A stretch of 64,000 nucleotides of DNA, taken from positions 1-64,000 of the forward strand of contig NZ_WHSB02000012.1 of assembly GCF_010994755.1 (NCBI RefSeq). The letters are read 5' to 3'. The DNA is from Shinella lacus. Lineage in GTDB: Bacteria; Pseudomonadota; Alphaproteobacteria; Rhizobiales; Rhizobiaceae. A model generated the notes under the pieces. It saw nothing but the letters and a program-made list of their open reading frames with translations. It was not told the DNA's origin and did not search any database. Position numbers and translations under genes: made by a program. Positions 7,539 to 23,553 of the stretch are shown in pieces. Every line of letters starts with the position of its first letter. Position 1 is the first letter of the stretch.

Positions 7539-7598
7539 CTCGAAATCCACCACCTCCCGATCTGCGATCCACATTCCCTCCCTGAAATAATCGCATTT

Positions 7599-7799
7599 AT
7601 ATCTTTTGTAAAAAATATCTTTTCTGTTCTCCAGGAAATGCCCATCGGGCGCTTCCTCGCCTTTTCCAGTTTGCTGCCTAAAATATAGGCGAATGCAAAT
7701 TATGTCAGCTATATTGACGCAATTCATGTTGGAAGGCCTCGAAAAGATTAACCGTTGACAAGGAGCAACCCTTCATATTTATTACTTTAAGAAAGATAT
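7599..7799. promoter_or_regulatory. Divergent promoter region with repeated ATATCTTTT motif
   Basis: ATATCTTTT occurs at 7599-7607 and again at 7616-7624, 17 bp apart. The core AAAGATAT appears inverted at 7792-7799, just before the transporter ribosome site. A TTGACA box at 7755-7760 faces the transporter genes, with an AT-rich stretch at the -10 distance. The repeats are candidate ROK operators; this is inferred from position only. Confidence 0.4.
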
Positions 7800-8569: not shown

Positions 8570-8584
8570 GGAGGAAGGAGAACC

Positions 8585-9589: not shown

Positions 9590-9676
9590 CGGCTGCGCCC
9601 GCACACAGTCAGGGCGTGGAGGAGTGCCTCGCCGTGAAGAAAGACGTCTTTATCAGCGAACCAAGGAGGAGATACC

Positions 9677-10693
9677 ATGTCGCTGTCAGGAAGCCTGAAA
9701 TTGACCCTGTCGTCTGCCGCGATCGCGCTTTGCGCCTTTGCCTCGACGGCGAATGCCGCAGACCGGGAATTCGCGCTGGTCTTCAAGGTATTGAACAACG
9801 CCTTCAGCCCGCCGATCGACGCCGGCTGCAAGGAAGCCGCCAAGAAGCTCGGCGACGTGACCTGCACCTATGTCGGCCCGACCGAATATGACGAAGCCAA
9901 GCAGGTTCAGCTCGCGCAGGACATGATCACCCGCGGCGTCGACGGGCTCGGCATTTCCGCCGGCAACCCGAAGGCGATGGCGCGCATCCTCAAGATGGCG
10001 AATGACAAGGGTATCCCGGTCGTCACCTTCGACACCGATGTGCTGCCGGAAGACGCCGGCCTGCGCGCCACCTATATCGGCACCGACAACTACTCCTTCG
10101 GCGTGGAACTCGCCAAGAAGGTGCTGGAGAACAAGAAAGAGGGCGGTACGGTCTGCATTCAGTCGGGCGCGCCGGCATCTGAAAACCTGAAGGCGCGCGT
10201 TCAAGGCATCCGCGACACGCTCGCCGGTGCCTCGAAGGACAAGCCGGTCGACACGCTCACCGGCCAGAACGGCTGGACCGAGCCGGCTGGTTGCCCGGTC
10301 TACAACAATGACGACATCGCGCTTGCCGCCCAGCAGGTTCGCGACGTCATGACCAACCATCCCGACCTCTCCGCCTTCGTTGCGGTTGGCGGGTGGGCGC
10401 AGTATGCGCCGCAGGCCTACAAGCAGGCGATGGAGCCGCTGAAGGAACGTCTCGACAAGAAGGATCTCGTCGTGGTCTTCGGCGACAACTTCGGTCCGCA
10501 GCTTCCGCTGCTCGCCGAAGGCCTGAGCCACTACAACATCGGCCAGCGTCCCTATGACATGGGCTACGAGACCATCATTGCCCTCGACAAGCTGACCAAG
10601 GGCGAAAAGCTCGAGCCGTTCATCCAGACCGGCACCGAGACCTGCACCCCGGCCGATGCGCTGACCACCTGCGGCAAGGTTGCCGCCAAGTAA
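9677..10693 (+). CDS. Sugar ABC transporter periplasmic binding protein
   Basis: A 338-residue Peripla_BP_4 protein. Residues 1-27 form a signal peptide ending FASTANA-ADR. The mature part starts with the usual first strand (FALVFKVLNNAF) and contains GVDGLGISAGNP and FDTDVLPEDAGLRATYIGTD, the RbsB/FrcB-type ligand-pocket segments. Four cysteines in the mature part (for example GCPVYNND and TCTPADALTTCG) suggest disulfides. An accaaggaggaga ribosome site precedes the ATG. A GC-rich hairpin follows the stop, as for most binding-protein genes in this window. Confidence 0.92.
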   Translation: MSLSGSLKLTLSSAAIALCAFASTANAADREFALVFKVLNNAFSPPIDAGCKEAAKKLGDVTCTYVGPTEYDEAKQVQLAQDMITRGVDGLGISAGNPKAMARILKMANDKGIPVVTFDTDVLPEDAGLRATYIGTDNYSFGVELAKKVLENKKEGGTVCIQSGAPASENLKARVQGIRDTLAGASKDKPVDTLTGQNGWTEPAGCPVYNNDDIALAAQQVRDVMTNHPDLSAFVAVGGWAQYAPQAYKQAMEPLKERLDKKDLVVVFGDNFGPQLPLLAEGLSHYNIGQRPYDMGYETIIALDKLTKGEKLEPFIQTGTETCTPADALTTCGKVAAK

Positions 10694-10711
10694 GCACGCT
10701 TCAAAGGGGAT

Positions 10712-10734
10712 GGGCCGGCGGTCAACGTCGGCCC
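10712..10734 (+). terminator. Intercistronic hairpin after binding-protein gene
   Basis: GGGCCG at 10712-10717 pairs with CGGCCC at 10729-10734, followed by gtttcatt. It lies between the binding-protein stop and the next start at 10760. It probably protects the upstream message or partly ends transcription, giving more binding protein than downstream enzymes. Confidence 0.5.
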
Positions 10735-10759
10735 GTTTCATTCCAGACAGGACAGGAAC

Positions 10760-11884
10760 ATGAGAACGCTGAAACTGGGCATGGTCGGCGGTGGCAATGG
10801 TGCGTTCTTCGGCGCCGCACACCGCGCTGCCGCCGCGATGACGGGACGCTTTTCGCTGGTCGCGGGCGCATTTTCGAGCGATGCGGTGCGCGCACGCGAA
10901 AGCGGGAACGATCTCGGACTCGACCCGGATCGCTGCTATGCAGATTTTGAGACGATGGCGCAGCGCGAGGCAAGCCGCGACGGCATCGACCTCGTCGCCG
11001 TGGTAACGCCGAACCACCTGCATGCACCCGCCTGTCGCGCCTTCCTCAGTGCCGGCATCAACATCCTCTGCGACAAGCCGCTGACCGCCACGCTGGATGA
11101 GGCGCACGCGCTCCAGAAGGTGGCCGAGGACAGCACCTCCCTTTTCGGTGTAACCTATACCAATGCCGGCTTCGACATGGTGCGCGAAGCGCGTGCGGTC
11201 GTGGCGGCCGGCGAGATCGGCGCCGTGCGTCTGGTCCGCGTCGCTTTTCCGCAGGAATGGCTGGCGACCGCCACCGAGGCGACCGGCAACAAACAGGCCG
11301 AATGGCGAACCGACCCGGCGAGAAGCGGCGCCGGCAGCCTCGGCGACATCGGCACCCATGCGTTCCATCTTGTCGAATTCGTCACGGGCCTCACGGCAAC
11401 ATCCCTTTCGGCCGAGGTCGATACCTTCGTCGCCGGCCGCCGCGTCGATGACAATGTGACGGCGAAGCTGCGCTTTGGCGGCGGCGCGAAAGGACTGCTC
11501 TGGGCAAGCCAGGTGGCGATCGGCGAAACCAACGGGCTCAAGATCGATGTGCACGGCGACAAGGGCTCCCTCGGCTGGACGGTTGAGGCGGCGAACCAGC
11601 TGACCTTTGCGCCGCTCGGCGGCCGGCGCATGGTGATCGACCGCGCCTCGCACGGAACTGCTTTCAAGGGACTGATGCCGCCCGGTCATCCCCAAGGATT
11701 CATCGAGGCGCTGGCGCGGCTCTATATCGACATGGCTGAACAGATCGAGGCGCGCCGCGCTGGACGCGCCGCGGCGGCCGATGCCCTGCTACTGCCCGGC
11801 ATCGGTGATGGTGTCCGCGGTTTGCGTTTCGTCGATGCCGCACTTCGCTCGGGCGCCGAAGATGGTCGCTGGACAGATATTTGA
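10760..11884 (+). CDS. Gfo/Idh/MocA-family oxidoreductase
   Basis: A 374-residue NAD(P)-dependent sugar or polyol dehydrogenase. The Rossmann fold begins at residue 5 with LGMVGGGNGAFFG. The family catalytic-lysine motif, usually EKP, reads CDKPLT. The DIGTHAFHLVEFVTG helix carries the conserved D and H of the active site. Such enzymes oxidise a ring or chain hydroxyl, often at C3 of a hexose or at an inositol carbon. It is the first enzyme gene after the transporter, in the same direction, and the first of two MocA-type genes here. Confidence 0.88.
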   Translation: MRTLKLGMVGGGNGAFFGAAHRAAAAMTGRFSLVAGAFSSDAVRARESGNDLGLDPDRCYADFETMAQREASRDGIDLVAVVTPNHLHAPACRAFLSAGINILCDKPLTATLDEAHALQKVAEDSTSLFGVTYTNAGFDMVREARAVVAAGEIGAVRLVRVAFPQEWLATATEATGNKQAEWRTDPARSGAGSLGDIGTHAFHLVEFVTGLTATSLSAEVDTFVAGRRVDDNVTAKLRFGGGAKGLLWASQVAIGETNGLKIDVHGDKGSLGWTVEAANQLTFAPLGGRRMVIDRASHGTAFKGLMPPGHPQGFIEALARLYIDMAEQIEARRAGRAAAADALLLPGIGDGVRGLRFVDAALRSGAEDGRWTDI

Positions 11885-11896
11885 CGTGAGACTTCT

Positions 11897-12934
11897 ATGA
11901 CTGGTAACGGCGCTCCCTTCCGCACCTTCATCATGGCACATCCGCGCCTCGTCGAAGACGTCTTCACGGACGCTCATCTTGCCCGGCTTCGTGCGCTCGG
12001 CGATGTCGTCATCCATGAGGGCGATGTGCTGAGCGACGAGGGTTTCGAAAGACACGTCGTGCCGGCCGATGTCGCGATGGGCATTTTCGACATGCCGGCC
12101 GAACGGCTGGCGCGCTGCTGCAATCTCAAGGCCTTCGTCAACAGCGAGGGAAACTTCTTGCCCAATATCGACTATCGCCATTGCTTCGAGCACGGCATCC
12201 GCGTGCTGTCGGCAAGCCACGTCTTTGCCGAACCGGTCGCCGAGATCGGACTGGCCATGGCTATCGATCTCGGCCGCGGTATCACCGAGGCCGACCGACT
12301 AATGCGGGAGGGCAAGGAAGAGTATGGATTTGCGGCCAACCGCAATGCGCTGCCGCTGATGCGTGCGCGGGTCGGGCTGATTGGTTTCGGCGATCTCGCC
12401 CGCGCGCTGTTGCCCTTGTTGAAACCGTTTACATCGACGATCGACGTCTACGACCCCTGGGTGCCCGGCCTGTTGATCGAGCAGGCCGGCTGCCGGTCGG
12501 TGTCGCTCGACGCGCTGCTTGCGGAGAGCGACTTCGTCTTCGTGCTCGCCGGCGTCACCTCCGACAATGCCGGTTTCCTCGACAGACGCGCGTTCGGGCT
12601 GATGAAACAGGGGGCGTGCCTGCTGCTGCTCAGCCGTGCGGCGGTCGCCAACTTCCCCGACATGCTGGAGGCCGCCGCTTCGGGCCGGATCCGGGTTGCG
12701 ACCGACGTTTTCCCGATCGAACCGGTCGCGGCCGACGACCCGGTGCGACGGACGCCGAACATCATCCTGTCGCCCCACCAGGCCGGCGCAATGGAATCGA
12801 CGTTGGGCGCCATGGGTGCATCGATCACTGCCGATATCGAGCTGATCGCCCGTGGCCTGCCGCCCGCCGTCTGCAAGGTGGCGCAGCCGGAGACCGCCGT
12901 GCGCTTCCGCAGCATGCCTGTGTCGAAGAGCTGA
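11897..12934 (+). CDS. D-2-hydroxyacid dehydrogenase family protein
   Basis: A 345-residue protein of the D-isomer-specific 2-hydroxyacid dehydrogenase family (NAD-dependent reduction of 2-oxo acids, or the reverse). The NAD fold has VGLIGFGDLARALLP. The catalytic trio is visible as R in LLSRAAV, E in DVFPIEPV and H in LSPHQAGA. The gap to the upstream gene is 12 bases. In a sugar locus such enzymes often act on sugar acids (gluconate, glycerate or hydroxypyruvate type), but no specific substrate can be assigned. Confidence 0.85.
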   Translation: MTGNGAPFRTFIMAHPRLVEDVFTDAHLARLRALGDVVIHEGDVLSDEGFERHVVPADVAMGIFDMPAERLARCCNLKAFVNSEGNFLPNIDYRHCFEHGIRVLSASHVFAEPVAEIGLAMAIDLGRGITEADRLMREGKEEYGFAANRNALPLMRARVGLIGFGDLARALLPLLKPFTSTIDVYDPWVPGLLIEQAGCRSVSLDALLAESDFVFVLAGVTSDNAGFLDRRAFGLMKQGACLLLLSRAAVANFPDMLEAAASGRIRVATDVFPIEPVAADDPVRRTPNIILSPHQAGAMESTLGAMGASITADIELIARGLPPAVCKVAQPETAVRFRSMPVSKS

Positions 12935-12984
12935 TGAACAGGGCCGGTCTTGAAAGCGCCGGCCAGTATTGAAAGGACAAGCTG

Positions 12985-14058
12985 ATGAACGAGGGTAAGC
13001 CGCTGCTGAAGGTCGGCATTCTCGGCTGCGGGCCGATCTCGCAGGCGGGGCATTTCGAAAGCGCCGTCAAAGCGCGCAATGTCGAGCTTTACGCCATCTG
13101 CGACGTCGCCGACGACCTGCGCGCCCGCATGGCTGCGACCCACGCGCCGAAGAAGGATTTCTCCGACTACGACGAGATGCTCGCAGATCCGGACGTCGAG
13201 GCCGTCATCATCGCGACGGCCGACGCCTTCCACGTCGCAGCCGCGACCCGGGCGCTGGAAGCCGGCAAACATGTGCTGTGCGAAAAGCCGCTCGGCATGA
13301 CGGTGGAGGATGTGGAGGGTCTTCGCCCCGTCGTCGAGAAAAGCGGCAAGGTCTTCCAGGTCGGTCACATGAAGCGCTACGACGCCGGCCTGCAAAGCGC
13401 CAAGACCTTCATCGACGCCGAGATGGGCGAGATGCTCGCACTGAAGGCTTGGTATTGCGATTCGACCCATCGTTATGCCGTCACCGACGCGGTGCAGCCC
13501 TACATGATCCGCAGCGCCAATGCGAAGAAGCCGTCGCGCAACCCGAAGGCCGATCTAGAGCAGTATTTCATGCTCGCCCATGGCAGCCACTTGCTCGACA
13601 CCGCCCGCTATTTTGCCGGTCCCATCCTTTCGGTCGATGCGCGGCTGCGCCAACGGTTCGGCGCCTATTCGTGGTTCATCGACGTCGAGTTCGCCAATGG
13701 CACCATGGGCCATCTGGACCTGACAGTTGCCGTGCGCATGGACTGGCACGAGGGCTTCCAGATCTACGGCGAGTACGGCAGCATTCTCGGCAAGACCTAC
13801 AATCCTTGGCTGTTCAAGAGCAGCGAGGTGGACATCTTCAGCGAAAAGACCGGGGCGACCAGCCGCGTACTCGGCGCCGACGGTCAATTCTACCGGCGCC
13901 AGCTGGAGGGCTTTGCAGACACGATCCTTGATGGCGGGCCGCTAACCGGCGCAGGCATTGAGGACGGCATCGCCTCGGTGCGCGCCATGGCGGCAGTGAT
14001 GCAGTCGGTGCGCGACAAGGCGCCGGTAAACCTCGCCGATGCGCAGGGGAGTGTGTGA
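12985..14058 (+). CDS. Gfo/Idh/MocA-family oxidoreductase (second copy)
   Basis: A 357-residue NAD(P)-dependent dehydrogenase with VGILGCGPIS at the N-terminus and the canonical LCEKPLGM motif. GSHLLDTARYF supplies the conserved active-site D. It differs clearly from the protein at 10760, so the two probably act at different steps or in opposite redox directions, as in oxidation-isomerisation-reduction schemes for inositols and rare sugars. Its stop overlaps the next start as TGATG. A ribosome site (aaaggacaagctg) precedes the ATG. Confidence 0.88.
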   Translation: MNEGKPLLKVGILGCGPISQAGHFESAVKARNVELYAICDVADDLRARMAATHAPKKDFSDYDEMLADPDVEAVIIATADAFHVAAATRALEAGKHVLCEKPLGMTVEDVEGLRPVVEKSGKVFQVGHMKRYDAGLQSAKTFIDAEMGEMLALKAWYCDSTHRYAVTDAVQPYMIRSANAKKPSRNPKADLEQYFMLAHGSHLLDTARYFAGPILSVDARLRQRFGAYSWFIDVEFANGTMGHLDLTVAVRMDWHEGFQIYGEYGSILGKTYNPWLFKSSEVDIFSEKTGATSRVLGADGQFYRRQLEGFADTILDGGPLTGAGIEDGIASVRAMAAVMQSVRDKAPVNLADAQGSV

Positions 14059-14897
14059 TGCGAACCGGTATCTTCGCCAAGACATTTGCCGGGACGACGC
14101 CGGACGCCGTGCTCGCCGCCGCCCGCGATGCCGGCTATGCGTCGGTCCAGTACAACTTCGCCTGCTCCGGTCTTGGCGCGCTGCCGGAGACGATCCCGGA
14201 TACCGCGGTCGCGGCGATCCGCGACGCGTCGGCAAAGAGCGGCGTCGCCATTGCGGCGATCTCCGCCACCTATAACATGATCCACCCGGATATCGGCACT
14301 CGCGAAGCGGGACGGCGCAGTTTCGCAGAAATCGCTAGTGTGGCACATCGGGCTGGCTCGAATCTCCTGACCGTCTGCACGGGCAGCCGCGACGCCGCCG
14401 ACCAGTGGCGTGACCATCCGGACAATCAGGGGGCCGAGGCCTGGCAGGACATGATCGCCGAGTTCGGCCATCTGCTCGCGATTGCCGAACGGCACGACGT
14501 CTTCATCGGCGTCGAGCCGGAGCTTGCCAATGTCATCAACTCCGCAGCTCAGGCGCGCCGGCTGATCGACACGATGGCGAGCGAGCGCATCCGCATCGTG
14601 CTCGATCCGGCGAACCTCTTCGAGCATGAGGACACGGATACGCGAGACCGCATCATCGACGAAGCGATCGATCTGCTGAAGGATAGCATCGCCATCGCCC
14701 ACGCGAAGGATCGCAACCCGGACGGTTCCTTCGCCACCGCGGGCAAGGGCGTCATCGACTATCCGCGTTACGTGGCCGCGCTGAAGAGGGCAGGGTTCGA
14801 CGGCGACGTGATCACCCACGGGCTTTCGGCGGCGGAAGCACCGGGCGTTGCCGCTTTCTTGGCACCCCTCCTTGCCTCGGAGGGCCGAGGCGCATGA
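14058..14897 (+). CDS. Sugar phosphate isomerase/epimerase (AP_endonuc_2 TIM barrel)
   Basis: A 279-residue xylose-isomerase-like TIM barrel of the IolE/IolI/tagatose-3-epimerase superfamily. Metal-binding positions can be read as E in IGVEPELANV, D in VLDPANLFE, H in AIAHAKDR and a late acidic region. The ATG at 14058 overlaps the upstream stop; an in-frame GTG lies one codon earlier. With a MocA enzyme on either side it probably isomerises or dehydrates a keto-sugar. It ends in an ATGA overlap with the hydrolase gene. Confidence 0.85.
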   Translation: MRTGIFAKTFAGTTPDAVLAAARDAGYASVQYNFACSGLGALPETIPDTAVAAIRDASAKSGVAIAAISATYNMIHPDIGTREAGRRSFAEIASVAHRAGSNLLTVCTGSRDAADQWRDHPDNQGAEAWQDMIAEFGHLLAIAERHDVFIGVEPELANVINSAAQARRLIDTMASERIRIVLDPANLFEHEDTDTRDRIIDEAIDLLKDSIAIAHAKDRNPDGSFATAGKGVIDYPRYVAALKRAGFDGDVITHGLSAAEAPGVAAFLAPLLASEGRGA

Positions 14898-15697
14898 ATC
14901 CAGCCCGCCATTCTGCCGATGGGGTGAGCCTTGCGGTCTACGAGGAGGGCGAAGGCATGCCCTTCGTTTTCCAGCATGGCCTTTGCGGCGATCAGGCCCA
15001 GCCGGGTCAGGTCTTTCCGGAGGATGTTGGCTTTCGTCGCATTACCCTCGAATGCCGTGGCCACGGCGCCTCGGACGCGGGCCCGAAGACGGCCTTTTCG
15101 ATCGCCACCTTCGCCAGCGACGTTGCCGGCTATCTTGACGCGAGCGGTATCGAGCGGCCGGTGGTGGGCGGTATTTCCATGGGAGCGGCGATCGCGCTCC
15201 GGCTTGCCGTGCGCCGGCCAGACCTGGTTCGGGCGCTGGTGATCGCCCGCCCGGCATGGATCTGCGCCGCCAACCCTGAAAACATGGCGCCGAACCGCAT
15301 TGCCGGCGAGCTTCTCGATCGCTATCCGCCGGACGAGGCACGCCGGCAATATGAAGCGTCACCGCAGGCCGAAGAGCTGGAGCGGACCGGACCGGACAAT
15401 CTCGCGTCGATCCGCGGCTTCTTCACCCGCGAGCCGATCGACGTCACCGCGGCGCTGCTCAGGGCGATCTCGATGGACGGTCCCGGTGTTACGGAGGCGG
15501 AGGTCTCGGCCGTCGCCGTGCCGACGCTGGTGATCGGCCATGGGCGCGACGTCGTTCATCCGCTTGGCCATGCGCAGTCGCTCGCGTCGATGATCCCGGG
15601 CGCACGGCTGGTGGAGATCACGCCGAAGGCGGACGATGCCGGCGCCTATCGCGCTGATTTCCGTGCCGCACTTGCGGCGTTCCTCAGGGAGCTTTGA
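14894..15697 (+). CDS. Alpha/beta-fold hydrolase
   Basis: A 267-residue alpha/beta hydrolase. The oxyanion HG motif reads VFQHGLCGD, the nucleophile elbow is GGISMGAA, and the acid is likely D in IGHGRDVVHP. The usual catalytic histidine near the C-terminus is not evident; the position after the last strand reads EITPKADDAG. The gene overlaps its upstream neighbour by 4 bp and lies 1 base before the next ATG, so it is translated with the pathway. A sugar lactone or ester is a plausible substrate. Confidence 0.8.
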   Translation: MNPARHSADGVSLAVYEEGEGMPFVFQHGLCGDQAQPGQVFPEDVGFRRITLECRGHGASDAGPKTAFSIATFASDVAGYLDASGIERPVVGGISMGAAIALRLAVRRPDLVRALVIARPAWICAANPENMAPNRIAGELLDRYPPDEARRQYEASPQAEELERTGPDNLASIRGFFTREPIDVTAALLRAISMDGPGVTEAEVSAVAVPTLVIGHGRDVVHPLGHAQSLASMIPGARLVEITPKADDAGAYRADFRAALAAFLREL

Positions 15698-15698
15698 G

Positions 15699-16406
15699 AT
15701 GCGGCCGCCTTCCGACTGGCTCGAAACCCTGCCCAAGGATCGGCTGATGGCCGAAATGTCGCTGTGGTCAGCCGATCTCGCCAGGCTTGGTGCGGAGATT
15801 GCTCGGATCGACCCCTTCACCGACATCTACCATATCGACGTCGCGGACGGCCATTTCTCGCCCGCTTTGCTGTTCTTCCCTGATCTTGTCGCCGTTTGCC
15901 GCCGCTGTTCGGCAAAACCGCTGCATATCCATTTGATGGCAGCAGATGCCATCCTCGAGGCCCAGATCCGCCAGTTCGCCGATGCCGGCGTCGATGCGAT
16001 CAGCATTCATGCGGAGAATGGAAATCTCGAGGCGGGCCTCGACCTCATCGACCGTCTCGGGCTCGTTCCCGGCGTCGTGCTGCAATTGCAAACACCGGTA
16101 TCGGCCGCAGCCTCCTTTATCGAGCGCATCGGCCTGCTGACGCTGCTCGGCACACGGGTCGGCGCGAAGGGCCAGGCGCTCGACCCGCAAGCCGAAAGCC
16201 GGCTCGGCGAGGCGCGCGCGCTGATCGCGAACCGGAGTGCGGCGGGCCGCATCCTGCTGTGCGCCGACGGCGGCATTCGCGAGCATACGGTGCCAAATCT
16301 CGCCCGGGCCGGCGCCGAGACCGTCGTCATGGGCTCGCTCGCTTTCGAGGCTGCGGATCTGGTTCAACGCATGGCCTGGCTACACGCGCAACCGGTGGAA
16401 CGATAA
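15699..16406 (+). CDS. Ribulose-phosphate 3-epimerase-like protein
   Basis: A 235-residue TIM barrel of the Ribul_P_3_epim family, which also includes allulose-6-phosphate epimerase AlsE. Diagnostic stretches are YHIDVADGHFSPALLF (metal-binding H and D), LHIHLMA and LLCADGGIREHTV, where the second catalytic Asp sits. I chose the ATG at 15699, one base after the hydrolase stop; the frame stays open to 15636. It is followed after 9 bases by a ROK kinase, an arrangement also seen in allose loci (alsE-alsK). Whether it acts on ribulose-5-P or a hexulose-6-P is not decided. Confidence 0.85.
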   Translation: MRPPSDWLETLPKDRLMAEMSLWSADLARLGAEIARIDPFTDIYHIDVADGHFSPALLFFPDLVAVCRRCSAKPLHIHLMAADAILEAQIRQFADAGVDAISIHAENGNLEAGLDLIDRLGLVPGVVLQLQTPVSAAASFIERIGLLTLLGTRVGAKGQALDPQAESRLGEARALIANRSAAGRILLCADGGIREHTVPNLARAGAETVVMGSLAFEAADLVQRMAWLHAQPVER

Positions 16407-16415
16407 GAGGCCCGC

Positions 16416-17363
16416 ATGAAGGACGATTTCACCATAGGTCTCGATCTCGGCGGCACGCAGGTTCGTGCAGCGTTGGTGCGAGCCGGCAAAGTTCTGTCGC
16501 GCACCGCGGTACGGACGGATGTCAGCGGCCCGGACGTGGTGATGCGCCAGTTTGGCGCGCTTGTCGAAGAGGTGTCGCAGGCGGCAGGCGGTGCGCCGAT
16601 CCGCGCTGTCGGCATGTGCGCGCCGGGCCCGCTCGATACTGTGAGCGGCATTATCGACCATATTCCGACCCTTCCCGGCTGGGAGCAATTCCCCTTGCGC
16701 GACCGTCTGTCTGAGATTTTTGGCCTCCCGGCCATCGTCGAGAATGACGGCATCGCCGCCGCCTTCGGCGAATGGCAGCATGGTGCGGCGCGCGGGCTCG
16801 ATCATCTCGTCTATGTCACGGTCAGCACCGGCATCGGCGGTGGCGTTGTCGTCGATGGCCGGCTGATGCATGGCGCACGCGGGATGGGCGGCCATGTCGG
16901 CCATTTCACATTGGTTGGGGAGGGGCCGGTCTGCTCCTGCGGCCGCGTCGGCTGCTTCGAGGCGGTTGCCGCCGGCACGGCCTTCGGCAAGCGCGCCCGT
17001 GCGGCCGCGGCCGGAAATCCTCGCTCCTATCTCGGCAGGATAGCCGCGCGCGAAACAGTCGAGGGTCGCCACGCCGTGGAGGGCGCGCGGGCAGGCGATG
17101 CCAGCTGCCTCGCCCTCGTTGCCGAGGAGGCAGATTTGCTCGGCTCGGGTTTCGCCAGCCTGCTGCATCTCTACAGCCCGCAAATGATCGTCATGGGCGG
17201 CGGCGTATCGGTCGCTTTCGACCTGCTCGAACCCGGCATCCGCGCGCGCATCCGCAAGGACGCCATGGCGCCCTTCCGCGAGGTGCCGGTCGTGCCTGCA
17301 ATGCTCGGCGACGACGCCGGCCTCGTCGGGGTGGCCGATCTGGCCCTTATTAAGCAGGGCTAG
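16416..17363 (+). CDS. ROK-family sugar kinase
   Basis: A 315-residue ROK protein without a DNA-binding domain, hence a kinase (glucokinase/allokinase/N-acetylmannosamine kinase type). The ATP site reads GLDLGGTQVRAA. The catalytic Asp lies in VENDGIAAAFGEW. The zinc motif is CSCGRVGCFEA, and VSTGIGGGVVVDGR is the second phosphate loop. It phosphorylates a hexose or amino sugar in the cytoplasm. It is the last gene before a 249-base gap with a new promoter. Confidence 0.9.
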   Translation: MKDDFTIGLDLGGTQVRAALVRAGKVLSRTAVRTDVSGPDVVMRQFGALVEEVSQAAGGAPIRAVGMCAPGPLDTVSGIIDHIPTLPGWEQFPLRDRLSEIFGLPAIVENDGIAAAFGEWQHGAARGLDHLVYVTVSTGIGGGVVVDGRLMHGARGMGGHVGHFTLVGEGPVCSCGRVGCFEAVAAGTAFGKRARAAAAGNPRSYLGRIAARETVEGRHAVEGARAGDASCLALVAEEADLLGSGFASLLHLYSPQMIVMGGGVSVAFDLLEPGIRARIRKDAMAPFREVPVVPAMLGDDAGLVGVADLALIKQG

Positions 17364-17545
17364 CATAGGCTCGTGCCCAACAGCGGTGAAAAACACTTGC
17401 CGAAACACATCGGCGGGTGCGAACGCCAAGGCGCTTCGTGAACTCTGCGACACGACGTGCGGGTAAGCGGCGACGAACAGATCTGCAGACGGAGCACCAT
17501 CGCGACCGTCTTGCCTCGCCACACAGACCTTCCTTTCCTCACTGA

Positions 17546-17573
17546 TTGACTTTCCCCTAAGTAATGGTATTTT
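17546..17573 (+). promoter_or_regulatory. Candidate promoter for second sugar transporter
   Basis: TTGACT at 17546-17551, a 16-base spacer and TATTTT at 17568-17573, 39 bases before the binding-protein ATG. The ribosome site is agggaggaga. Good match to a housekeeping-type promoter; no experimental support. Confidence 0.45.
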
Positions 17574-17612
17574 TGAGAAAGAGATCGATCTCATTTCCAG
17601 GGAGGAGAGAAA

Positions 17613-18572
17613 ATGAGCCGTTTTCGTCGTCTTTTTGCTATTGCCGCGATGTCCACCGTCGCGTTCGCCGCCACTGTCGCTCAGGCGCAGGAAAAGCTGA
17701 CTGTCGCCTTCATTCCGGGCATTGCATCAGACCCGTTCTTCCTGGCGATGGAGAAGGGCGCGCGTGCCGCCGCTGAAAAACTCGGCATCGAGCTGATCTG
17801 GCAGGGCAGTGCGTCCGAATATTCGCCGCAGAGCCAGTTGCCCTTCGTCGATGCCGCATTGGCACAGGATATCGATGTCCTCATCCTCGTGCCGACCGAC
17901 CCGGATTCCTTGCAGCCGAGCGTCCAGCGCGCGGAAGCTGCGGGCATCCCGGTCATCACCGTCGATACGACCGTCACCGACCAGGCCTATCTGACGTCTC
18001 ACATCACCGGCGACAATGTCGACGGCGGCCGGCAGGCGGCCAAGACGCTTGCCGAACAGATCGGCGGGGAGGGCAAGGTCTTCATCATGTCCGGCTCGCC
18101 GAGTGCCACGACCAACACGCTGCGCGAACAGGGTTTTCGCGAGGAGCTGGCGGCGAACTATCCGAAGATCGAGATCGTCGGGCGCGAATATGCCAACAGC
18201 CAGCCGGCGAATGCGACCTCGGCCATCAACACCGTGCTGCTCAACCATCCCGACCTCGTCGGCATCTTCGCCATCGATGGCACGAGCGGTACCGGGGCGG
18301 TCGCAGCACTTCGCAACAGCAACGTGGTCGGCAAGGTGAAGCTCGTCGGCTACGACGCCTATAAGGCCCAGGTCGATGCGCTCCAGGAAGGCGTGTTCAC
18401 CGCGCTCGTCGCCCAGCAACCGGCCAGGGAGGCGGAACTGGCGCTGGAATATGCGAAGGCCAAGGTCACGGGCGAGGGGGCGGACAAGATCGAGAAATCG
18501 GTCGTCATCCCGAACGTCGTCATGACCAAGGACAATTTCGCGGAAACCGGCTCGTCCATCTATTCCGACTGA
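17613..18572 (+). CDS. Sugar ABC transporter periplasmic binding protein (RbsB-like)
   Basis: A 319-residue Peripla_BP_4 protein. The signal peptide covers residues 1-25 and ends VAQAQ. The mature protein has VAFIPGIASDPFFLAMEKG, VPTDPDSLQPSVQRAE and ITVDTTVTDQAYLTSHITGD, the hinge and ligand segments of ribose/allose-type receptors. The permease and ATPase that follow complete the importer. It differs strongly from the receptor at 9677, so the locus imports at least two related compounds. Confidence 0.92.
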   Translation: MSRFRRLFAIAAMSTVAFAATVAQAQEKLTVAFIPGIASDPFFLAMEKGARAAAEKLGIELIWQGSASEYSPQSQLPFVDAALAQDIDVLILVPTDPDSLQPSVQRAEAAGIPVITVDTTVTDQAYLTSHITGDNVDGGRQAAKTLAEQIGGEGKVFIMSGSPSATTNTLREQGFREELAANYPKIEIVGREYANSQPANATSAINTVLLNHPDLVGIFAIDGTSGTGAVAALRNSNVVGKVKLVGYDAYKAQVDALQEGVFTALVAQQPAREAELALEYAKAKVTGEGADKIEKSVVIPNVVMTKDNFAETGSSIYSD

Positions 18573-18600
18573 GCTCGGTCCTCCCAGCAAGCAAAAGAAG

Positions 18601-19605
18601 ATGTCACGCGATATGGAAGCGCAAGCCCGGCCGCATTGGCTGAAAACAGTGATGGTGAGGCAGGATGTCATCCTGCTTCTCCTCTTCTGCATCATGATCG
18701 CCGCATTCTCGGCGGCAAATCCCCGGTTCTTCTCGATCCGGGCGATGGCCAATGTGTTGCAGGACTTTTCCCCCGTGGTGTTGATGGCGATCGGCCAGAC
18801 CTTCGTCATCGCCTCGCGTGGCATCGACCTGTCCGTCGGCTCGGTCCTCGGTCTTGCCGGCGTTTCCATGGCACTGGTCATCCGCGCCGCCAATGAAGGC
18901 GGCGTCGATCCGTGGCTGGCGATCACGCTCGGCATGGCGGTGGCGATCGGTGTCGGCGTCGTCGTCGGCTTCATCAATGGCCTGCTGATCACCTATTGCC
19001 GGCTCGTTCCCTTCGTCGCCACGCTCGCAACGATGGGCGCGGCAGCCGGCATGAGCCTGGTTTTGACCGGCGGCACGCAGATCGCCGGCGCGCCAAAGGA
19101 GGTGATCCTGCTCGGCAACGCCACCTATCTCGGCGCGCTGACGGTGCCGGTCATCGCGGTCTTCGTGATCATCATACTGTCCTGGGCCTTCCTGTCGCGG
19201 GCGCGTTTCGGCCGCTGGACCTACGCGATCGGCTCCAACCCCTTTGCCGCGCGCGGTGCCGGCATTTCCGTGGATCGACATCTGATCAAGATCTACCTGA
19301 TCTCCGGTATCCTTGCAGCACTTGCCGGTGCCTTCGTCTATTTCCGCCTCGGCTCGGGATCGCCCTTGTCGGGTCGCGGCGGGGAGCTCAATGCCATCGC
19401 TGCGACCGTGATCGGCGGCGTCAGCCTGCAAGGCGGCACGGGCAAGCTCTCGGGCGTCGTGGTCGGCGCGCTGATCACCACAGCGGTTTTGAGCGGCCTC
19501 ATCCTGATCGGCGTCCAGCCCAACTGGCAGCAGATCGTCGTCGCCGCGCTGATTGCGCTCGCCGTCGGCGTGCAGGGGCTCGGTGCGAGGGGAGGCCGTC
19601 GATGA
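18601..19605 (+). CDS. Sugar ABC transporter permease (RbsC/FrcC type)
   Basis: A 334-residue membrane protein with the family segment ASRGIDLSVGSVLGLAG and the late loop IGGVSLQGGTGK. The ATG at 18601 follows a purine-rich agcaaaagaag. Its stop overlaps the ATPase start as ATGA, which implies coupled translation. It is paired with the receptor at 17613. Confidence 0.92.
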   Translation: MSRDMEAQARPHWLKTVMVRQDVILLLLFCIMIAAFSAANPRFFSIRAMANVLQDFSPVVLMAIGQTFVIASRGIDLSVGSVLGLAGVSMALVIRAANEGGVDPWLAITLGMAVAIGVGVVVGFINGLLITYCRLVPFVATLATMGAAAGMSLVLTGGTQIAGAPKEVILLGNATYLGALTVPVIAVFVIIILSWAFLSRARFGRWTYAIGSNPFAARGAGISVDRHLIKIYLISGILAALAGAFVYFRLGSGSPLSGRGGELNAIAATVIGGVSLQGGTGKLSGVVVGALITTAVLSGLILIGVQPNWQQIVVAALIALAVGVQGLGARGGRR

Positions 19606-20351
19606 CAGCGCTTTATGAAGTGCGCGGCGTGGGAAAACGCTATGGCGGCGTGGTTGCGCTCGACCACGTGGATTTCGCGTTGAATGCCGGCGAAGTCGTC
19701 GGCCTTGTCGGCGACAACGGGGCGGGCAAGTCGACGCTGGTCAAGGTGCTTTCGGGCGCCCATGAGCCGGACAGCGGCGAGATCTATCTCGACGGAGAGC
19801 GCCGCAGCTGGAAATCGCCGCACGACGCGCTCGAAGCCGGCATCGAGACGCTCTACCAGGATTCCGGCATCGCGCCGGACCTGACGGTTGCCGCCAACGT
19901 CTTTCTCGGGCGCGAGATCCTTCGCAAGGACCTGCTTGGAAGGTTCGGGTTTCTCGACGAGGCGGCGATGCGCAAGCAGGCGCATGCCGAGCTGGAGCGT
20001 GTCGGCATCGCGGTGCCGGCGACGAGCCGGCCGGTATCGCGCCTTTCCGGCGGGCAGCGCCAGGCGGTGGCGATCGGCCGGGCGGTCGCCTGGGCCAACA
20101 AGGTGATCATCCTCGACGAACCGACCAACCATCTCGGCGCCCGCCAGGCCGGCGAGGTGCTGGAAGTCATCCGACAAGCCAAAGCCAAGGGGTTCGGCGT
20201 CATCTTCATCTCACACACGCTGCCGCATGTGTTGGATGTCACCGACCGCATCACCGTGCTGCGCCTCGGCCGTGTGGTCGCTGATGCGCCCTCTTCCAGT
20301 TTCACGCCTGACAGCCTTTTGAAGGCGATTACCGGCCTTTCGCAAGCCTAG
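19602..20351 (+). CDS. Sugar ABC transporter ATP-binding protein (FrcA-like, single domain)
   Basis: A 249-residue ATPase with Walker A GDNGAGKST, signature LSGGQRQAVAIGR, Walker B VIILDEPTN and FISHTL. I chose the ATG at 19602, inside the permease stop; the open frame extends upstream but is a shadow of the permease. Like the protein at 7826 it has a single ABC domain. A hexulose-phosphate synthase-like gene begins 11 bases after its stop, so transport and metabolism are in one operon. Confidence 0.92.
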   Translation: MTALYEVRGVGKRYGGVVALDHVDFALNAGEVVGLVGDNGAGKSTLVKVLSGAHEPDSGEIYLDGERRSWKSPHDALEAGIETLYQDSGIAPDLTVAANVFLGREILRKDLLGRFGFLDEAAMRKQAHAELERVGIAVPATSRPVSRLSGGQRQAVAIGRAVAWANKVIILDEPTNHLGARQAGEVLEVIRQAKAKGFGVIFISHTLPHVLDVTDRITVLRLGRVVADAPSSSFTPDSLLKAITGLSQA

Positions 20352-20362
20352 AGGACATTTTC

Positions 20363-21022
20363 ATGCTGCTTCAAGTCGCGCTCGACAAGCCCGAGCATTT
20401 CGGAATCCTGCCCGCCCTCAGAGGCGTGGCTGATATCATCGAGGTGGGTACGCCGGTTCTCAAACGCTTCGGCGTGGCCGCGATCACCACGGTGCGCGAA
20501 CTGTGCCCGGACGTGCCCGTGCTTGCCGACACCAAGACCGTCGATGGCGGCGCCTTCGAGGCCAACATGGTCTTCAGCGCCGGCGCGTCCTTCATGACGG
20601 TGCTGTCTTGCGCCTCGCAAGCCACTTTCGAGGCCGTTGGCGCCGTTGCCACCACTTTCGGCGCAAATGTCATCATCGATACGATTACCGAGTCCGGCAA
20701 GCCTGTTCTGCTGCGCCCCGATATCTGCCTACCGGAAAGTTTCGCCTATGTTGCCGTGCATTCGCCGACCGACGCACGGCTCGCGGGCGATACCTCGACC
20801 AGCCATATCGAAGCCGTCGCGGCCATGCACGCGCGTGGCTTCCGCGTGTCGCTTGCCGGCGGAATCGGCCCGGCGACGCTTGACGCCGTCATTGCGGTCA
20901 AACCCGAAATTCTGGTGGTCGGCAGTGCGATCACCGAATCTGACAATCCAGGAAAGGTAGCATCATGGATCAAGGAACGTCTGCCCGAGCCGGAGCTTGG
21001 CTGGCCGTGGGACAGGAAATAA
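20363..21022 (+). CDS. hxlA: 3-hexulose-6-phosphate synthase-like protein (OMPDC superfamily)
   Basis: A 219-residue protein of the orotidine-phosphate decarboxylase suprafamily, in the hexulose-phosphate synthase branch. Residues 1-34 read like HPS (LQVALDK, DIIEVGTPVLKRFG). The metal and proton-transfer motif DTKTVD is at residues 56-61, and AGGIGPATLDAV is the phosphate loop. HPS condenses formaldehyde with ribulose-5-P, or cleaves 3-hexulose-6-P in reverse. 3-keto-L-gulonate-6-P decarboxylase is the close alternative, but the directly following isomerase argues for a hexulose-6-P substrate. Confidence 0.78.
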   Translation: MLLQVALDKPEHFGILPALRGVADIIEVGTPVLKRFGVAAITTVRELCPDVPVLADTKTVDGGAFEANMVFSAGASFMTVLSCASQATFEAVGAVATTFGANVIIDTITESGKPVLLRPDICLPESFAYVAVHSPTDARLAGDTSTSHIEAVAAMHARGFRVSLAGGIGPATLDAVIAVKPEILVVGSAITESDNPGKVASWIKERLPEPELGWPWDRK

Positions 21023-21513
21023 CCGAACTGCTGGAGCGCATCGATCCGGCCGCCTTCGCGGCGGTCGTGGAGGCCTTTGGAGATCCCAGCCGGCGATGGT
21101 TCTTTTCCGGCCAGGGCCGTTCGGGGCTCGCCGCCCAGATGTCCGCCATGCGCTTCATGCATCTCGGCCGAAACGTGCATTTCGTCGGCGAGGTGACGGG
21201 GCCGTCCATCCGCAAGGGCGACGGGCTGCTCATCATCTCTGGGTCCGGCGAGACGCCCGTCAGCCTGAGCTACGCAAAGATCGCAAAGGCCGAGGGTGCC
21301 ACGGTGGTGACCCTGACGCACAAGCCGAAGGGCTCGCTTTCGCAGATCGCCGACGTCGTCCTGCCGGTGCCGGTCGTGGAGACCGCGCAGTTCGGTGGCA
21401 GCCTGTTCGAGCAGACGAGCCTGCTGCTGCTGGATGCCGTGGTGCTGGAAATGGCGCGCGCGCTGCCGGATGCCCATGCCACAATGTCTTACAGGCACAC
21501 CAATCTCCAGTGA
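20965..21513 (+). CDS. hxlB: 6-phospho-3-hexuloisomerase (SIS domain)
   Basis: A 182-residue SIS-domain protein matching 6-phospho-3-hexuloisomerase along its length: GQGRSGLAAQMSAMRFMHLG, VTGPSIRKGDGLLIISGSGET and the terminal SYRHTNLQ, where the family has ERHxNLE. PHI converts D-arabino-3-hexulose-6-P to fructose-6-P. The ATG at 20965 has a good site (aggaaagg, 7 bases upstream) but overlaps the synthase gene by 58 bp; a GTG at 21007 is an alternative start nearer the usual N-terminus. Confidence 0.87.
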   Translation: MDQGTSARAGAWLAVGQEITELLERIDPAAFAAVVEAFGDPSRRWFFSGQGRSGLAAQMSAMRFMHLGRNVHFVGEVTGPSIRKGDGLLIISGSGETPVSLSYAKIAKAEGATVVTLTHKPKGSLSQIADVVLPVPVVETAQFGGSLFEQTSLLLLDAVVLEMARALPDAHATMSYRHTNLQ

Positions 21514-21520
21514 GCGCCGG

Positions 21521-22402
21521 ATGCATTCCATCGTCACGATAGGTGACTGTATCATCGACGAAATCCGCTTCGAGACCGAGGACCCGCGTCGCTTCGCCGG
21601 CGGCGCGGGCCTCAATCTCGCGGCCGGCGTCGCAAAGCTGGGCTTACCCTCGACCCTCGTCACGCGTGTGGGGCAGGACCGGGACGGTTACTATCTCCGG
21701 CGCTACGCCCGCGATCGGGCTGTGCGCATCATCAATACGCCCAGCGTCGATCCGACCGGCGTTGTGACCTCGACCCGGAAGAATGGCGAGCCGAGCTATG
21801 CTTTCGGCCCCGCAATGTTCCGGCGCCGCATCCTGTTCGACGTGGCGGTGAGCGACGCGCTCGCCGACGCCAGCGTCGTCGCCGTCAACTCGTTTCCGTT
21901 CGACAATGCCGTACAGGCGGCCGCACTTGCTGCGGCATTCCAAAGTACGCCCCGCATCCGCATCGTCGATCCCAATCCGCGCCCGCGCCTGATCCCGGAC
22001 ATTGCACGCTATCGGCAGGGCTTCGAGGCGCTGCTGCCGACGGCGTCTCTGGTCAAGCTCAGCGATGAGGACTTGCAGGTGCTCTACGATGCGGACTGGC
22101 AGAAGGTTGCCTCGCATCTCTTCGAGCTTGGCGCCGAGACGCTGCTCTTTTCACATGGCGCACAGGGTGCTCGGGTGGTCGAGCGATCGGGCCTTGCCGT
22201 CCATGTGCCGGTGGTCGAGTTGCCAAGCCCGATCGTCGACACGATGGGGGCAGGCGATGCGACGCTCGCCAGTGTCATCGCATCGCTGGCCCGAAACGGC
22301 CGGCCGCAATCCGCGTCGAAGTGGCAGGCCTGCCTTTCTGAGGCCATGGTTGTGGCGGCGGCGACCTGCCGGCAGGCCGGAGCCGAGCTTGTTCTGCCCT
22401 AA
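21521..22402 (+). CDS. PfkB-family carbohydrate kinase
   Basis: A 293-residue ribokinase-like kinase. The substrate-side glycine motif reads FAGGAGLNLAAGVAKLG and the PfkB signature with the catalytic Asp is VDTMGAGDATLASV. I chose the ATG at 21521, 7 bases after the isomerase stop. Its place next to the HPS/PHI pair suggests that it phosphorylates a hexulose or related keto-sugar before isomerisation. Several residues differ from fructokinases, so the substrate stays open. Confidence 0.87.
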   Translation: MHSIVTIGDCIIDEIRFETEDPRRFAGGAGLNLAAGVAKLGLPSTLVTRVGQDRDGYYLRRYARDRAVRIINTPSVDPTGVVTSTRKNGEPSYAFGPAMFRRRILFDVAVSDALADASVVAVNSFPFDNAVQAAALAAAFQSTPRIRIVDPNPRPRLIPDIARYRQGFEALLPTASLVKLSDEDLQVLYDADWQKVASHLFELGAETLLFSHGAQGARVVERSGLAVHVPVVELPSPIVDTMGAGDATLASVIASLARNGRPQSASKWQACLSEAMVVAAATCRQAGAELVLP

Positions 22403-22491
22403 TCGTTTGGTCGGCGATTGTGTCGATATTCCACGCGCAGACGCACTTATGTTGTGCTATCGCAGCCGCAAGCGGCAAGAGGGGGACAGGC

Positions 22492-23553
22492 ATGGCGCAA
22501 GCGCCGATCGACAAGGCGGCAAGGCTGATCGACGTTGCCGAACGGGCCAATGTCTCGCGCGCCACCGCTGCGCGCGTGCTCGGTGGGTACGGGCTGGTGA
22601 CGGAGGTGACGCGTCAGCGCGTCATGGCAGCAGCCAACGAACTAAATTACCGCGTCAACGAATTGGCGCGCTCCATGCGCTCCGGGCGTACGTTGACGAT
22701 CGGCGTCGTCGTCGCCGATATCGCCAACTCCTTCTTCAACAGCGCGATCCGAGCCATCATTGAAACGGCGTCGCGGGCGGGTTACCAGATCCTCGTTTTG
22801 AACACGGATGACGATATCGAGCGCGAGCGCAATGCCGTGCGGGTACTGATTGAGAAGCGAGTGGATGGCCTAATCGTCGTGCCTTCTTCACCGGATGAAA
22901 TCGACCATCTGCTGGTCGAAAGCGAGCCGGAAGTGCCGGTTGTGCTGCTCGACCGCGACGTCAATTCCAGCAAGATCGATTTTGTGACGACGGACGACTT
23001 TGAAGCCGCACATACTGCAATCCTGCAATTTGCCAGCGTTGGCCATAACCGGATCGGGCTGCTTGTCGCGACCGCGAATGTAGAGACTCACAGCAGCACC
23101 ATGCCAGCGCAGGTCGTGACAACAGTACGCAACCGCGTCTGTGGTGCAGAGATGGCGCTTACCGAATGCGGACTTGAGATTCGGTCGGAGTGGATCCGCT
23201 ACAGCCAAAGCAATATGGACATTGCGCGTGAGGCGGCGATCAACATTCTCAGCCAAGAGACGAGGCCAACGGCCATTCTGGCAACGAACGAGGAAATGGC
23301 GCTTGCCGTGGTATCGGCGGCTGGCGACCTCGGCCTTACCATCGGTGTGGATCTCTCGATCATAGGGTTCGACGATGTTCCCTGGGCGCGTGTTTTCAAC
23401 CCACCGCTCTCTGTAATACGTCGGCCAGTCGCACAACTGGGTGCGATGGCGGTGGAATTCCTTTTGAAGAAGATTGAAGATCCCACCGTTCGCCGCTCTC
23501 AAAAACTACCGGCGGAACTTGTAGCGCGCCGATCAGTCGGGCCACCTCCGTAA
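22492..23553 (+). CDS. LacI-family transcriptional regulator
   Basis: A 353-residue LacI/GalR regulator. The helix-turn-helix reads LIDVAERANVSRATAARVLGG, followed by the hinge VNELARSMRSGRT and a periplasmic-binding-like effector domain (IGVVVADIANSFFNSAI to IIGFDDVPWARVFNPPL). The ATG at 22492 has gagggggac upstream; an earlier in-frame start at 22420 would add an unusual leader. It closes the sugar locus and probably controls the second transporter and HPS/PHI operon. No matching palindrome was found by eye. Confidence 0.9.
   Translation: MAQAPIDKAARLIDVAERANVSRATAARVLGGYGLVTEVTRQRVMAAANELNYRVNELARSMRSGRTLTIGVVVADIANSFFNSAIRAIIETASRAGYQILVLNTDDDIERERNAVRVLIEKRVDGLIVVPSSPDEIDHLLVESEPEVPVVLLDRDVNSSKIDFVTTDDFEAAHTAILQFASVGHNRIGLLVATANVETHSSTMPAQVVTTVRNRVCGAEMALTECGLEIRSEWIRYSQSNMDIAREAAINILSQETRPTAILATNEEMALAVVSAAGDLGLTIGVDLSIIGFDDVPWARVFNPPLSVIRRPVAQLGAMAVEFLLKKIEDPTVRRSQKLPAELVARRSVGPPP

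What the first reader, a model, noticed from the sequence alone, without database searches (positions are those of the whole stretch)
15699..22402. HPS/PHI pair in an alphaproteobacterial rare-sugar locus
A hexulose-phosphate synthase-like gene and a clear 6-phospho-3-hexuloisomerase gene lie between an ABC importer and a PfkB kinase. An Rpe/AlsE-like epimerase and a ROK kinase are in the upstream operon. Together they can connect a 3-keto-hexose 6-phosphate to fructose-6-P, or release formaldehyde and ribulose-5-P. No formaldehyde-oxidising gene is visible, which argues against simple methylotrophy. The combination with two MocA dehydrogenases and an IolE-like isomerase suggests a sugar route via 3-keto intermediates that I cannot match to a known pathway.
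Basis: partly seen in the sequence, partly recalled or inferred. Interest (0 to 1): 0.7.

Follow-up and report, generated by a model that had tools for sequence, protein, structure and literature searches.

The report
Sugar-import cassette with formaldehyde-handling enzymes
A soil bacterium carries a compact, conserved set of genes that seems to import a sugar, phosphorylate it and pass it through two enzymes normally used to capture formaldehyde, a sugar route that I could not find described and whose sugar is still unknown.

Summary
The genes are real. HPS-like 20363-21022 and PHI 20965-21513 overlap by 58 nt and lie between a CUT2 importer and a PfkB kinase. The natural unit is seven genes: importer, HPS, PHI, PfkB and LacI (17613-23553). 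All seven recur in six related loci (Shinella, Ensifer, Rhizobium, Mesorhizobium); four actinobacterial loci keep importer-HPS-PHI-PfkB. The HPS is not a keto-gulonate-6-P decarboxylase: all three switch residues and the best structural match are HPS-type. HPS and PHI each form their own long-stemmed clade. A palindrome (TGAGATCGATCTCA) lies before the importer in 8 of 8 aligned loci. It does lie about 7 kb away in Ensifer. My two formaldehyde-dehydrogenase queries found no convincing match in 32 related loci, but two of them have zwf before HPS. Partners vary (kinases, aldose-phosphate isomerase, polyol dehydrogenase) but mostly point to a hexulose-6-phosphate entering PHI then HPS. Sugar and direction are not shown. 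New variant of a known kind.

The parts
17546..17573 (+). sigma-70-like promoter: TTGACT, 16 nt, TATTTT, with TG before the second hexamer
   Evidence: the one promoter-like site in 17300-17700, 9 of 12 matches; shuffles mean 0.2 sites (a consensus match only)
17580..17593 (.). LacI-type operator, AGAGATCGATCTCA here (TGAGATCGATCTCA in the others), between the -10 box and the SBP start codon
   Evidence: GAGATCGATCTCA invariant in 8 of 8 aligned loci; only copy in the window with up to 2 mismatches (35 of 100 shuffles also have one or more); for position
17613..18572 (+). CUT2 sugar-binding protein (SBP2)
   Evidence: model mean pLDDT 87.1, top Foldseek match 5dkv; 52-88% identity in 10 of 32 related loci
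18601..19605 (+). CUT2 permease
19602..20351 (+). CUT2 ATPase; start ATG 19602 overlaps the permease stop
   Evidence: the start is read from the ORF listing
20363..21022 (+). HPS-like enzyme (OMPDC/HUMPS family)
20965..21513 (+). 6-phospho-3-hexuloisomerase (PHI, SIS domain), overlapping HPS by 58 nt; alternative GTG start 21007
21521..22402 (+). PfkB-family sugar kinase; contains DTMGAGD (read)
22492..23553 (+). LacI-family regulator of the unit
7826..17363 (+). separate operon, not part of the unit: CUT2 importer, MocA, 2-hydroxyacid dehydrogenase, MocA, IolE-like, alpha/beta hydrolase, Rpe-like, ROK
   Evidence: same gene order without HPS in L073

Best explanation
A LacI-controlled sugar-catabolic cassette. 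The CUT2 importer brings in a sugar, probably a ketohexose or a close relative. PfkB phosphorylates its terminal hydroxyl to a hexulose 6-phosphate. PHI moves the carbonyl from C2 to C3, and the HPS-like enzyme cleaves (or, in reverse, forms) the 3-hexulose 6-phosphate to a pentulose 5-phosphate plus formaldehyde, which joins the pentose-phosphate pool. HPS and PHI are made from overlapping genes, which would keep the two in balance. In other taxa the same core seems to be fed by other steps: cupin phosphoglucose isomerase, mannitol-dehydrogenase-type enzyme, FGGY kinase or CUT1 importers. Shown: gene content, conservation, HPS-type active-site residues, conserved palindrome. Inferred: substrate class, order of steps, direction of HPS, that LacI binds the palindrome.
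For: All seven genes in L012 and in L025-L030 (G361 is the same locus as L029), and importer-HPS-PHI-PfkB in L050, L052, L053, L055. In 32 related loci PHI is beside HPS in 32; within the locus there is PfkB in 18, CUT2 importer in 10, CUT1 in 12, cupin GPI in 11, mannitol-dehydrogenase family in 2. Overlapping HPS-PHI start candidate in 32 of 32, 58 nt with ATG in 24. Catalytic residues kept in 16 of 16 clade rows and the three KGPDC/HPS switch positions HPS-like. Two other HPS groups, which pair with each other at 91/96, also sit in sugar loci: PTS-GPI-hxlB-hxlA in Enterobacteria and the lyxose isomerase-PHI loci L007/L008, whose LacI is 54-58% identical to the window's; L008 has two copies of the operator core between LacI and HPS, L007 none. 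Of six annotated classical hxlA loci that I opened (of 193 plasmid records), 5 carry a formaldehyde dehydrogenase or zwf/gnd (not).
Against: No substrate or activity is shown. If the hexulose phosphate were fructose or allulose 6-phosphate, HPS would not be needed. In two actinobacterial MAGs (L049, L056) zwf lies before HPS-PHI-PfkB, the arrangement of formaldehyde-oxidising RuMP loci. In 11 Mesorhizobium-type loci the kinase is FGGY and (where the contig reaches) the importer CUT1, so the sugar may differ. L054 shows neither kinase nor a recognised importer. The nearest solved SBP is only about 33% identical.
Confidence: 0.5

Rival explanations
1. A formaldehyde-fixing RuMP shunt fed by a sugar: the importer and PfkB supply a pentulose 5-phosphate acceptor (or PfkB acts on fructose 6-phosphate), and HPS-PHI run in the synthesis direction to trap formaldehyde made elsewhere in the cell.
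For: HPS and PHI profiles and residues fit the classical enzymes. zwf lies before HPS in L049/L056, and zwf/gnd/pgi are in the Rhodococcus and Priestia hxlAB loci. The SBP relatives of known structure include ribose binders.
Against: With two formaldehyde-dehydrogenase queries (FrmA type, MscR type) the 32 loci gave only a 24-27% match in L047, while 3 of the 6 classical loci opened have such a gene; 8 of the 32 loci are shorter than 20 kb and other formaldehyde genes were not queried. The regulator is LacI type, not a winged-helix, LuxR or LysR type as in classical loci. Own clade with clade-specific residues. The genome has two class III formaldehyde dehydrogenases already.
Confidence: 0.25
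2. The HPS-like enzyme has changed substrate: it uses the family's enediolate chemistry on another sugar phosphate, for example a branched-chain one such as 2-C-hydroxymethyl-ribose (hamamelose) 5-phosphate, releasing formaldehyde that the same enzyme re-adds at C1.
For: Long stem (1.73 changes per column) with 100/100 support. R139 in 15 of 16 clade rows replaces a glutamine found in all 13 rows outside the clade; T or S stands at the KGPDC Arg139 position in 16 of 16 where the six classical rows have L or Y. F36 (14 of 16), T107 (16 of 16), T57 (16 of 16, also archaeal) and R35 (16 of 16, also the two enterobacterial rows) differ from the classical rows.
Against: Catalytic residues unchanged. 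PHI, whose known substrate is 3-hexulose 6-phosphate, is always the partner. The published hamamelose route ends with a RuBisCO-like protein (passage of PMC8914248). The stem joins another long branch, so its length and place are unsure.
Confidence: 0.15
3. One reading: HPS-PHI-PfkB form one pathway with the upstream MocA dehydrogenases, IolE-like isomerase, Rpe-like epimerase and ROK kinase through 3-keto sugars.
For: Adjacent and co-directional in the window. In Ensifer (L027/L089) the MocA2-IolE-ABH-Rpe-ROK genes are about 7 kb downstream of the HPS unit on the same strand. On one contig, 54.5 kb apart, in two Shinella.
Against: Same operon without HPS nearby in L073. 119 plasmid records hold a MocA2 homologue, 3 hold HPS of 60% or more, 1 is shared. 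MocA2 is missing at E 1e-80 from 5 of the 10 genomes with HPS loci that I searched; in those of L025, L030 and L031 it lies on another contig. Own importer; no HPS-unit operator before it.
Confidence: 0.07
4. The synthase is a keto-gulonate-6-phosphate decarboxylase.
For: Same superfamily; 98.7 bits to a KGPDC model.
Against: The E, R and T of the one UlaD row at KGPDC positions 112, 139 and 169 are D106, T136 and A165 here; D, T/S and A in 16 of 16 clade rows. Best structural match is Salmonella HPS 3f4w. The UlaD row is a far outgroup.
Confidence: 0.03

Closest known systems
Classical RuMP hxlA/hxlB pair (formaldehyde detoxification or assimilation)
   Same: Same two families, catalytic residues and neighbouring genes
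   Different: Own HPS and PHI clades; long gene overlap; sugar importer, PfkB and LacI in place of the formaldehyde dehydrogenase or zwf/gnd of 5 of 6 classical loci opened
Enterobacterial SgrR / PTS IIBC / cupin GPI / hxlB / hxlA island
   Same: HPS-PHI tied to sugar uptake; T at the specificity position. 3f4w, the best structural match of the window HPS, reads almost like this island's enzyme (by eye)
   Different: Different HPS group, PTS instead of ABC plus PfkB, GPI present. I saw no function for it; PMC4819403 lists hxlB in a table (passage)
L007/L008 loci: LacI, HPS-PHI, CUT2-type ABC, PHI2, DUF4432, D-lyxose isomerase (PfkB seen in L008)
   Same: LacI 54-58% identical to the window's; L008 has the same operator core before HPS
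   Different: HPS about 36% identical and of another group; aldose isomerase present
3-keto-L-gulonate-6-phosphate decarboxylase (UlaD/SgbH)
   Same: Fold and active-site residues
   Different: All three switch residues differ
Reverse RuMP pathway of archaea (recalled)
   Same: Would run HPS-PHI towards ribulose 5-phosphate plus formaldehyde
   Different: The two archaeal rows form a separate clade; there it is said to serve pentose synthesis, not import of a sugar (recalled)

Membership tests
3-hexulose-6-phosphate synthase (HxlA, TIGR03128) | Curated equivalog score of 200 bits | tested here: not met
   149.3 bits, residues 3-205 on positions 1-203 of 205; so I file it as an HPS-like separate clade, not as HxlA equivalog
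3-hexulose-6-phosphate synthase (HxlA, TIGR03128) | Active-site residues D8, E27, D56, K58, D61, H133 (window numbering; their role is recalled) | tested here: met
   16 of 16 clade rows and 13 of 13 others
3-hexulose-6-phosphate synthase (HxlA, TIGR03128) | HPS-type residues at the KGPDC switch positions 112, 139, 169 | tested here: met
   D, T/S (never R), A in 16 of 16; the triad is that of mutant structures 1xbx/1xbz (titles); its meaning is recalled
3-hexulose-6-phosphate synthase (HxlA, TIGR03128) | Condenses formaldehyde with ribulose 5-phosphate | not testable with these tools
   needs purified enzyme
6-phospho-3-hexuloisomerase (HxlB, TIGR03127) | Curated score of 160 bits | tested here: not met
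   156.1 bits, just below
6-phospho-3-hexuloisomerase (HxlB, TIGR03127) | Motifs GxGRSG, SGSGxT, FEQT/FEET, HxNL shared with 1m3s and 1jeo | tested here: met
   alignments, read by eye
Keto-gulonate-6-phosphate decarboxylase | Glu112, Arg139, Thr169 | tested here: not met
   (one UlaD row for comparison)
Methylotrophic or detoxifying RuMP locus | Formaldehyde-linked gene beside HPS-PHI | tested here: inconclusive
   FrmA- and MscR-type queries: one 24-27% match in 32 loci; zwf in L049 and L056; other formaldehyde genes not queried
[quoted passage not shown]
   100.1 bits; rpe 126.4 against 212.6
LacI-controlled operon | Conserved palindromic operator at the promoter | tested here: met
   8 of 8 aligned loci; binding not tested

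The most novel reading that the evidence does not exclude
A formaldehyde shuttle that epimerises hexulose phosphates at C4. A D-tagatose- or D-sorbose-type 6-phosphate is turned by PHI into a 3-hexulose 6-phosphate. HPS cuts it to xylulose 5-phosphate and formaldehyde, Rpe makes ribulose 5-phosphate, and the same HPS and PHI put the formaldehyde back to give fructose 6-phosphate. Formaldehyde would be a recycled internal carrier, which would explain why HPS and PHI are always kept together, mostly with a sugar kinase and without formaldehyde-oxidising genes that I could see.
Probability: 0.12. Interest if true: 0.85.

Novelty: new variant of a known kind. Interest (0 to 1): 0.5.

Why it matters
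HPS and PHI are known as formaldehyde enzymes. This cassette, kept from Alphaproteobacteria to Actinobacteria, ties them to sugar import and a sugar kinase, so some genomes called formaldehyde-fixing or methylotrophic on these two genes alone may be sugar users instead. If formaldehyde is a true intermediate of sugar breakdown, that is a route I did not see in the papers I could search. The SBP gives a direct handle: one ligand screen could name the sugar.

Tried and rejected
KGPDC identity: rejected on the switch residues and structure. One pathway with the MocA operon: rejected as best reading, but the Ensifer proximity is kept on record. Operator as a unique regulon marker: rejected; the 12-base core also precedes a fructosamine-type operon on C24, whose own LacI is 33% identical to the window's with a like recognition helix, and occurs 0 to 6 times per genome in 21 genus genomes, 18 of which have it. 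Its reversed control occurs in none of the 21, but that control holds CTAG, which I recall to be scarce in such genomes. Naming the ligand from the nearest SBP structure: not possible; titles are cut and identity is about 33%. I recall 5dkv as a tagatose complex, which no call shows. The first scan of genome contigs with one sequence found nothing; the scan with alignment A2 gave 40 loci. Alignment A1 held a wrong-strand row for L002 and was discarded. In one search one query (LacIact) was read with two stops in it and its matches are not used. Matches under 60% of a query were dropped and (under 50%) 50; this hid MocA2 in L027, which searches show. Some rows are one locus under two names: G361/L010/L011 = L029, G247/L005 = L046, L003 = L007, L004 = L008; they are not counted twice.
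Full report
Observation. The HPS-like protein scores 149.3 bits to TIGR03128 (cut-off 200) and less to KGPDC models (98.7, 80.9); PHI scores 156.1 to TIGR03127 (cut-off 160). Pfam gives OMPdecase/HUMPS, SIS and PfkB above gathering scores. PHI starts inside HPS: ATG 20965 against HPS stop 21022, an overlap of 58 nt.

Where the unit ends. I compared the neighbourhood with relatives. In Shinella sp. WSD5-1 (L012) the order SBP, permease, ATPase, HPS, PHI, PfkB, LacI is the same, while the flanks differ. A scan of genome contigs (one genome for each of 84,980 species) with alignment A2 gave 40 loci: 32 (L025-L056) at 47-86% identity and 8 archaeal at 31-37%. Within the 32, PHI is beside HPS in 32; the locus also holds PfkB in 18, a CUT2 importer in 10, a CUT1 importer in 12, cupin GPI in 11 and a mannitol-dehydrogenase-family gene in 2. 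Eight of the 32 are shorter than 20 kb, so these are lower bounds. L025-L030 have all seven genes; L050, L052, L053 and L055 (Actinobacteria) have importer-HPS-PHI-PfkB, in L050, L053 and L055 with a divergent LacI match of 48, 30 and 30%. The unit is rare: HPS at E 1e-10 in 4 of 297 sampled genomes of the order (two of them only 37% identical), 2 of 199 of the family and 1 of 385 of the class, and at E 1e-40 in 4 of 21 of the genus, each count including the window's own genome. The genus is Shinella, judged by matching coordinates of L026, L028 and H3 with G880, G882 and G883.

The upstream operon is another unit. Shinella sumterensis carries the set importer, MocA, hydroxyacid dehydrogenase, MocA, IolE-like, alpha/beta hydrolase, Rpe-like, ROK with a divergent ROK regulator, followed by a LysR gene and arginine-type genes, not HPS. 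The window too has a divergent ROK-type regulator, 6339-7727 (family by reading). A MocA2 homologue of 60% or more identity occurs in 119 plasmid records, HPS of 60% or more in 3, one shared; not all 119 need hold the whole operon (L074 has a shorter set). In the genus, MocA2 at 94% or more is in 5 of 21 genomes (8 of 21 at E 1e-150), HPS in 4 of 21, both in 3, and in the two besides the window they are 54.5 kb apart; the fourth HPS genome, G880, has a 70% MocA2 on another contig. Of 10 genomes of HPS loci that I picked from the 32, 5 have MocA2 at E 1e-80. Against this, in Ensifer adhaerens Lc04 the MocA2, IolE, ABH, Rpe and ROK genes follow the HPS unit by about 7 kb on the same strand, behind a CUT1-type importer and a ROK-type regulator (both by reading). 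I take the two as separate operons that sit near each other on some replicons.

Regulation. The stretch before SBP2 holds a palindrome, TGAGATCGATCTCA, of which GAGATCGATCTCA is invariant in 8 of 8 aligned loci, the window included, from Shinella, Rhizobium, Ensifer and Mesorhizobium. Five of them have a second copy of the core 52 to 54 nt upstream. In the window it is AGAGATCGATCTCA at 17580-17593, between the -10 box and the start codon, and there is no other copy with up to two mismatches in 64 kb (35 of 100 shuffles had at least one match, so scarcity alone means little). Conservation in register is the evidence. L008, with a LacI 54% identical, has two cores between LacI and HPS; L007, 58%, has none.

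The enzyme. In a tree of 29 sequences the window HPS lies in a group of 16 (picked from the 32 loci plus the window) with 100/100 support and a stem of 1.73 changes per column; the program warns that this stem meets another long branch, so its neighbour is unsure. The PHI tree of 26 gives the same group at 100/99, with the like warning. The catalytic residues are kept. The three positions that separate KGPDC from HPS read D, T/S and A in 16 of 16. R139 (15 of 16) replaces a glutamine of all 13 other rows; F36, T107, T57 (also archaeal) and R35 (also the two enterobacterial rows) differ from the classical rows. At the Arg139 position the sugar-linked rows have T, S or V, the six classical rows L or Y, and the two archaeal rows I. 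The model (mean pLDDT 92.1) matches Salmonella HPS 3f4w best, then KGPDC E112D/R139V/T169A and other mutants, some with ribulose 5-phosphate.

What it does. HPS of three groups is found in sugar loci: the window's; the enterobacterial PTS-GPI island (132 of 5,426 E. coli genomes); and L007/L008 with lyxose isomerase. In each, what surrounds HPS-PHI could make a hexulose 6-phosphate: kinase after importer, PTS plus GPI, isomerase plus kinase. This converges on PHI then HPS, and favours inflow from sugar (inference). Of six annotated classical hxlA loci that I opened, 5 carry a formaldehyde dehydrogenase or zwf/gnd (the sixth has neither close by). FrmA- and MscR-type queries found only a 24-27% match, in L047, among the 32, but L049 and L056 have zwf before HPS, which speaks for the RuMP rival there. 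The cell can probably oxidise free formaldehyde anyway: two class III dehydrogenases above cut-off. It also has a separate rpe above cut-off, so the Rpe-like gene of the MocA operon is not needed for the shuttle.

The sugar. SBP2 is closest to 5dkv of Agrobacterium vitis, about 33% identical. At several positions that I recall as ribose contacts in E. coli RbsB it reads differently (recalled RbsB sequence and contacts, not tested), so ribose is less likely but not excluded.

Literature. Ten full-text searches listed no paper that I could recognise, by title or start of abstract, as describing this gene set; several lists were cut (12 of 472, 15 of 46, 12 of 53, 10 of 38, 25 of 44), and asked about hamamelose and an SBP structure. 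Passages seen: PMC8914248 (hamamelose route with a RuBisCO-like protein), PMC8879981 (RuMP review), PMC5301498 (acI genomes with HPS, read there as fixation and detoxification of formaldehyde), PMC4819403 (hxlB in a table); abstract and outline of PMC10101011. Only open-licence papers were searched, so absence is weak.

Verdict. A real, conserved sugar cassette built round HPS and PHI that I did not find described; new variant of a known kind; substrate and direction open.

Noticed in passing
L077:9547-16176 (G000:C24): The second exact core GAGATCGATCTC in the genome precedes a fructosamine-type operon: FrlB-like SIS deglycase, CUT1-type importer genes, FrlD-like PfkB kinase and an FAD oxidoreductase, with its own LacI upstream (33% to the window's, like recognition helix).
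   Followed up: partly
L052:139-1149: A SIS deglycase 61% identical to the one of L077 lies beside the HPS unit in an actinobacterial MAG, a possible link between the unit and Amadori-type sugars.
   Followed up: partly
L056:8517-9992 and L049 from 8532: zwf before HPS-PHI-PfkB in two MAGs, unlike the sugar-import context elsewhere in the clade.
   Followed up: no
L018:4148-9637 and L014:5146-10636: SgrR, glucose-type PTS IIBC, cupin GPI, hxlB and hxlA island in 132 of 5,426 complete E. coli genomes and on a Salmonella plasmid; I saw no function for it.
   Followed up: partly
L031:4431-11151; FGGY and GPI matches also in L035 and L037-L045: HPS-PHI with divergent cupin GPI, a shikimate-dehydrogenase-like protein, an MBL-fold protein (weak UlaG match) and an FGGY xylulokinase-like kinase (the middle two annotated in L031 only).
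   Followed up: partly
window 15699-16406: Rpe-like protein below cut-off for both rpe and AlsE; matches at E 1e-20 in 115 plasmid records; perhaps a separate epimerase subgroup.
   Followed up: no
window 4078-5574 (-): ORF that reads like an IS21-type transposase (by eye, not searched) upstream of both operons; may have helped bring them together.
   Followed up: no
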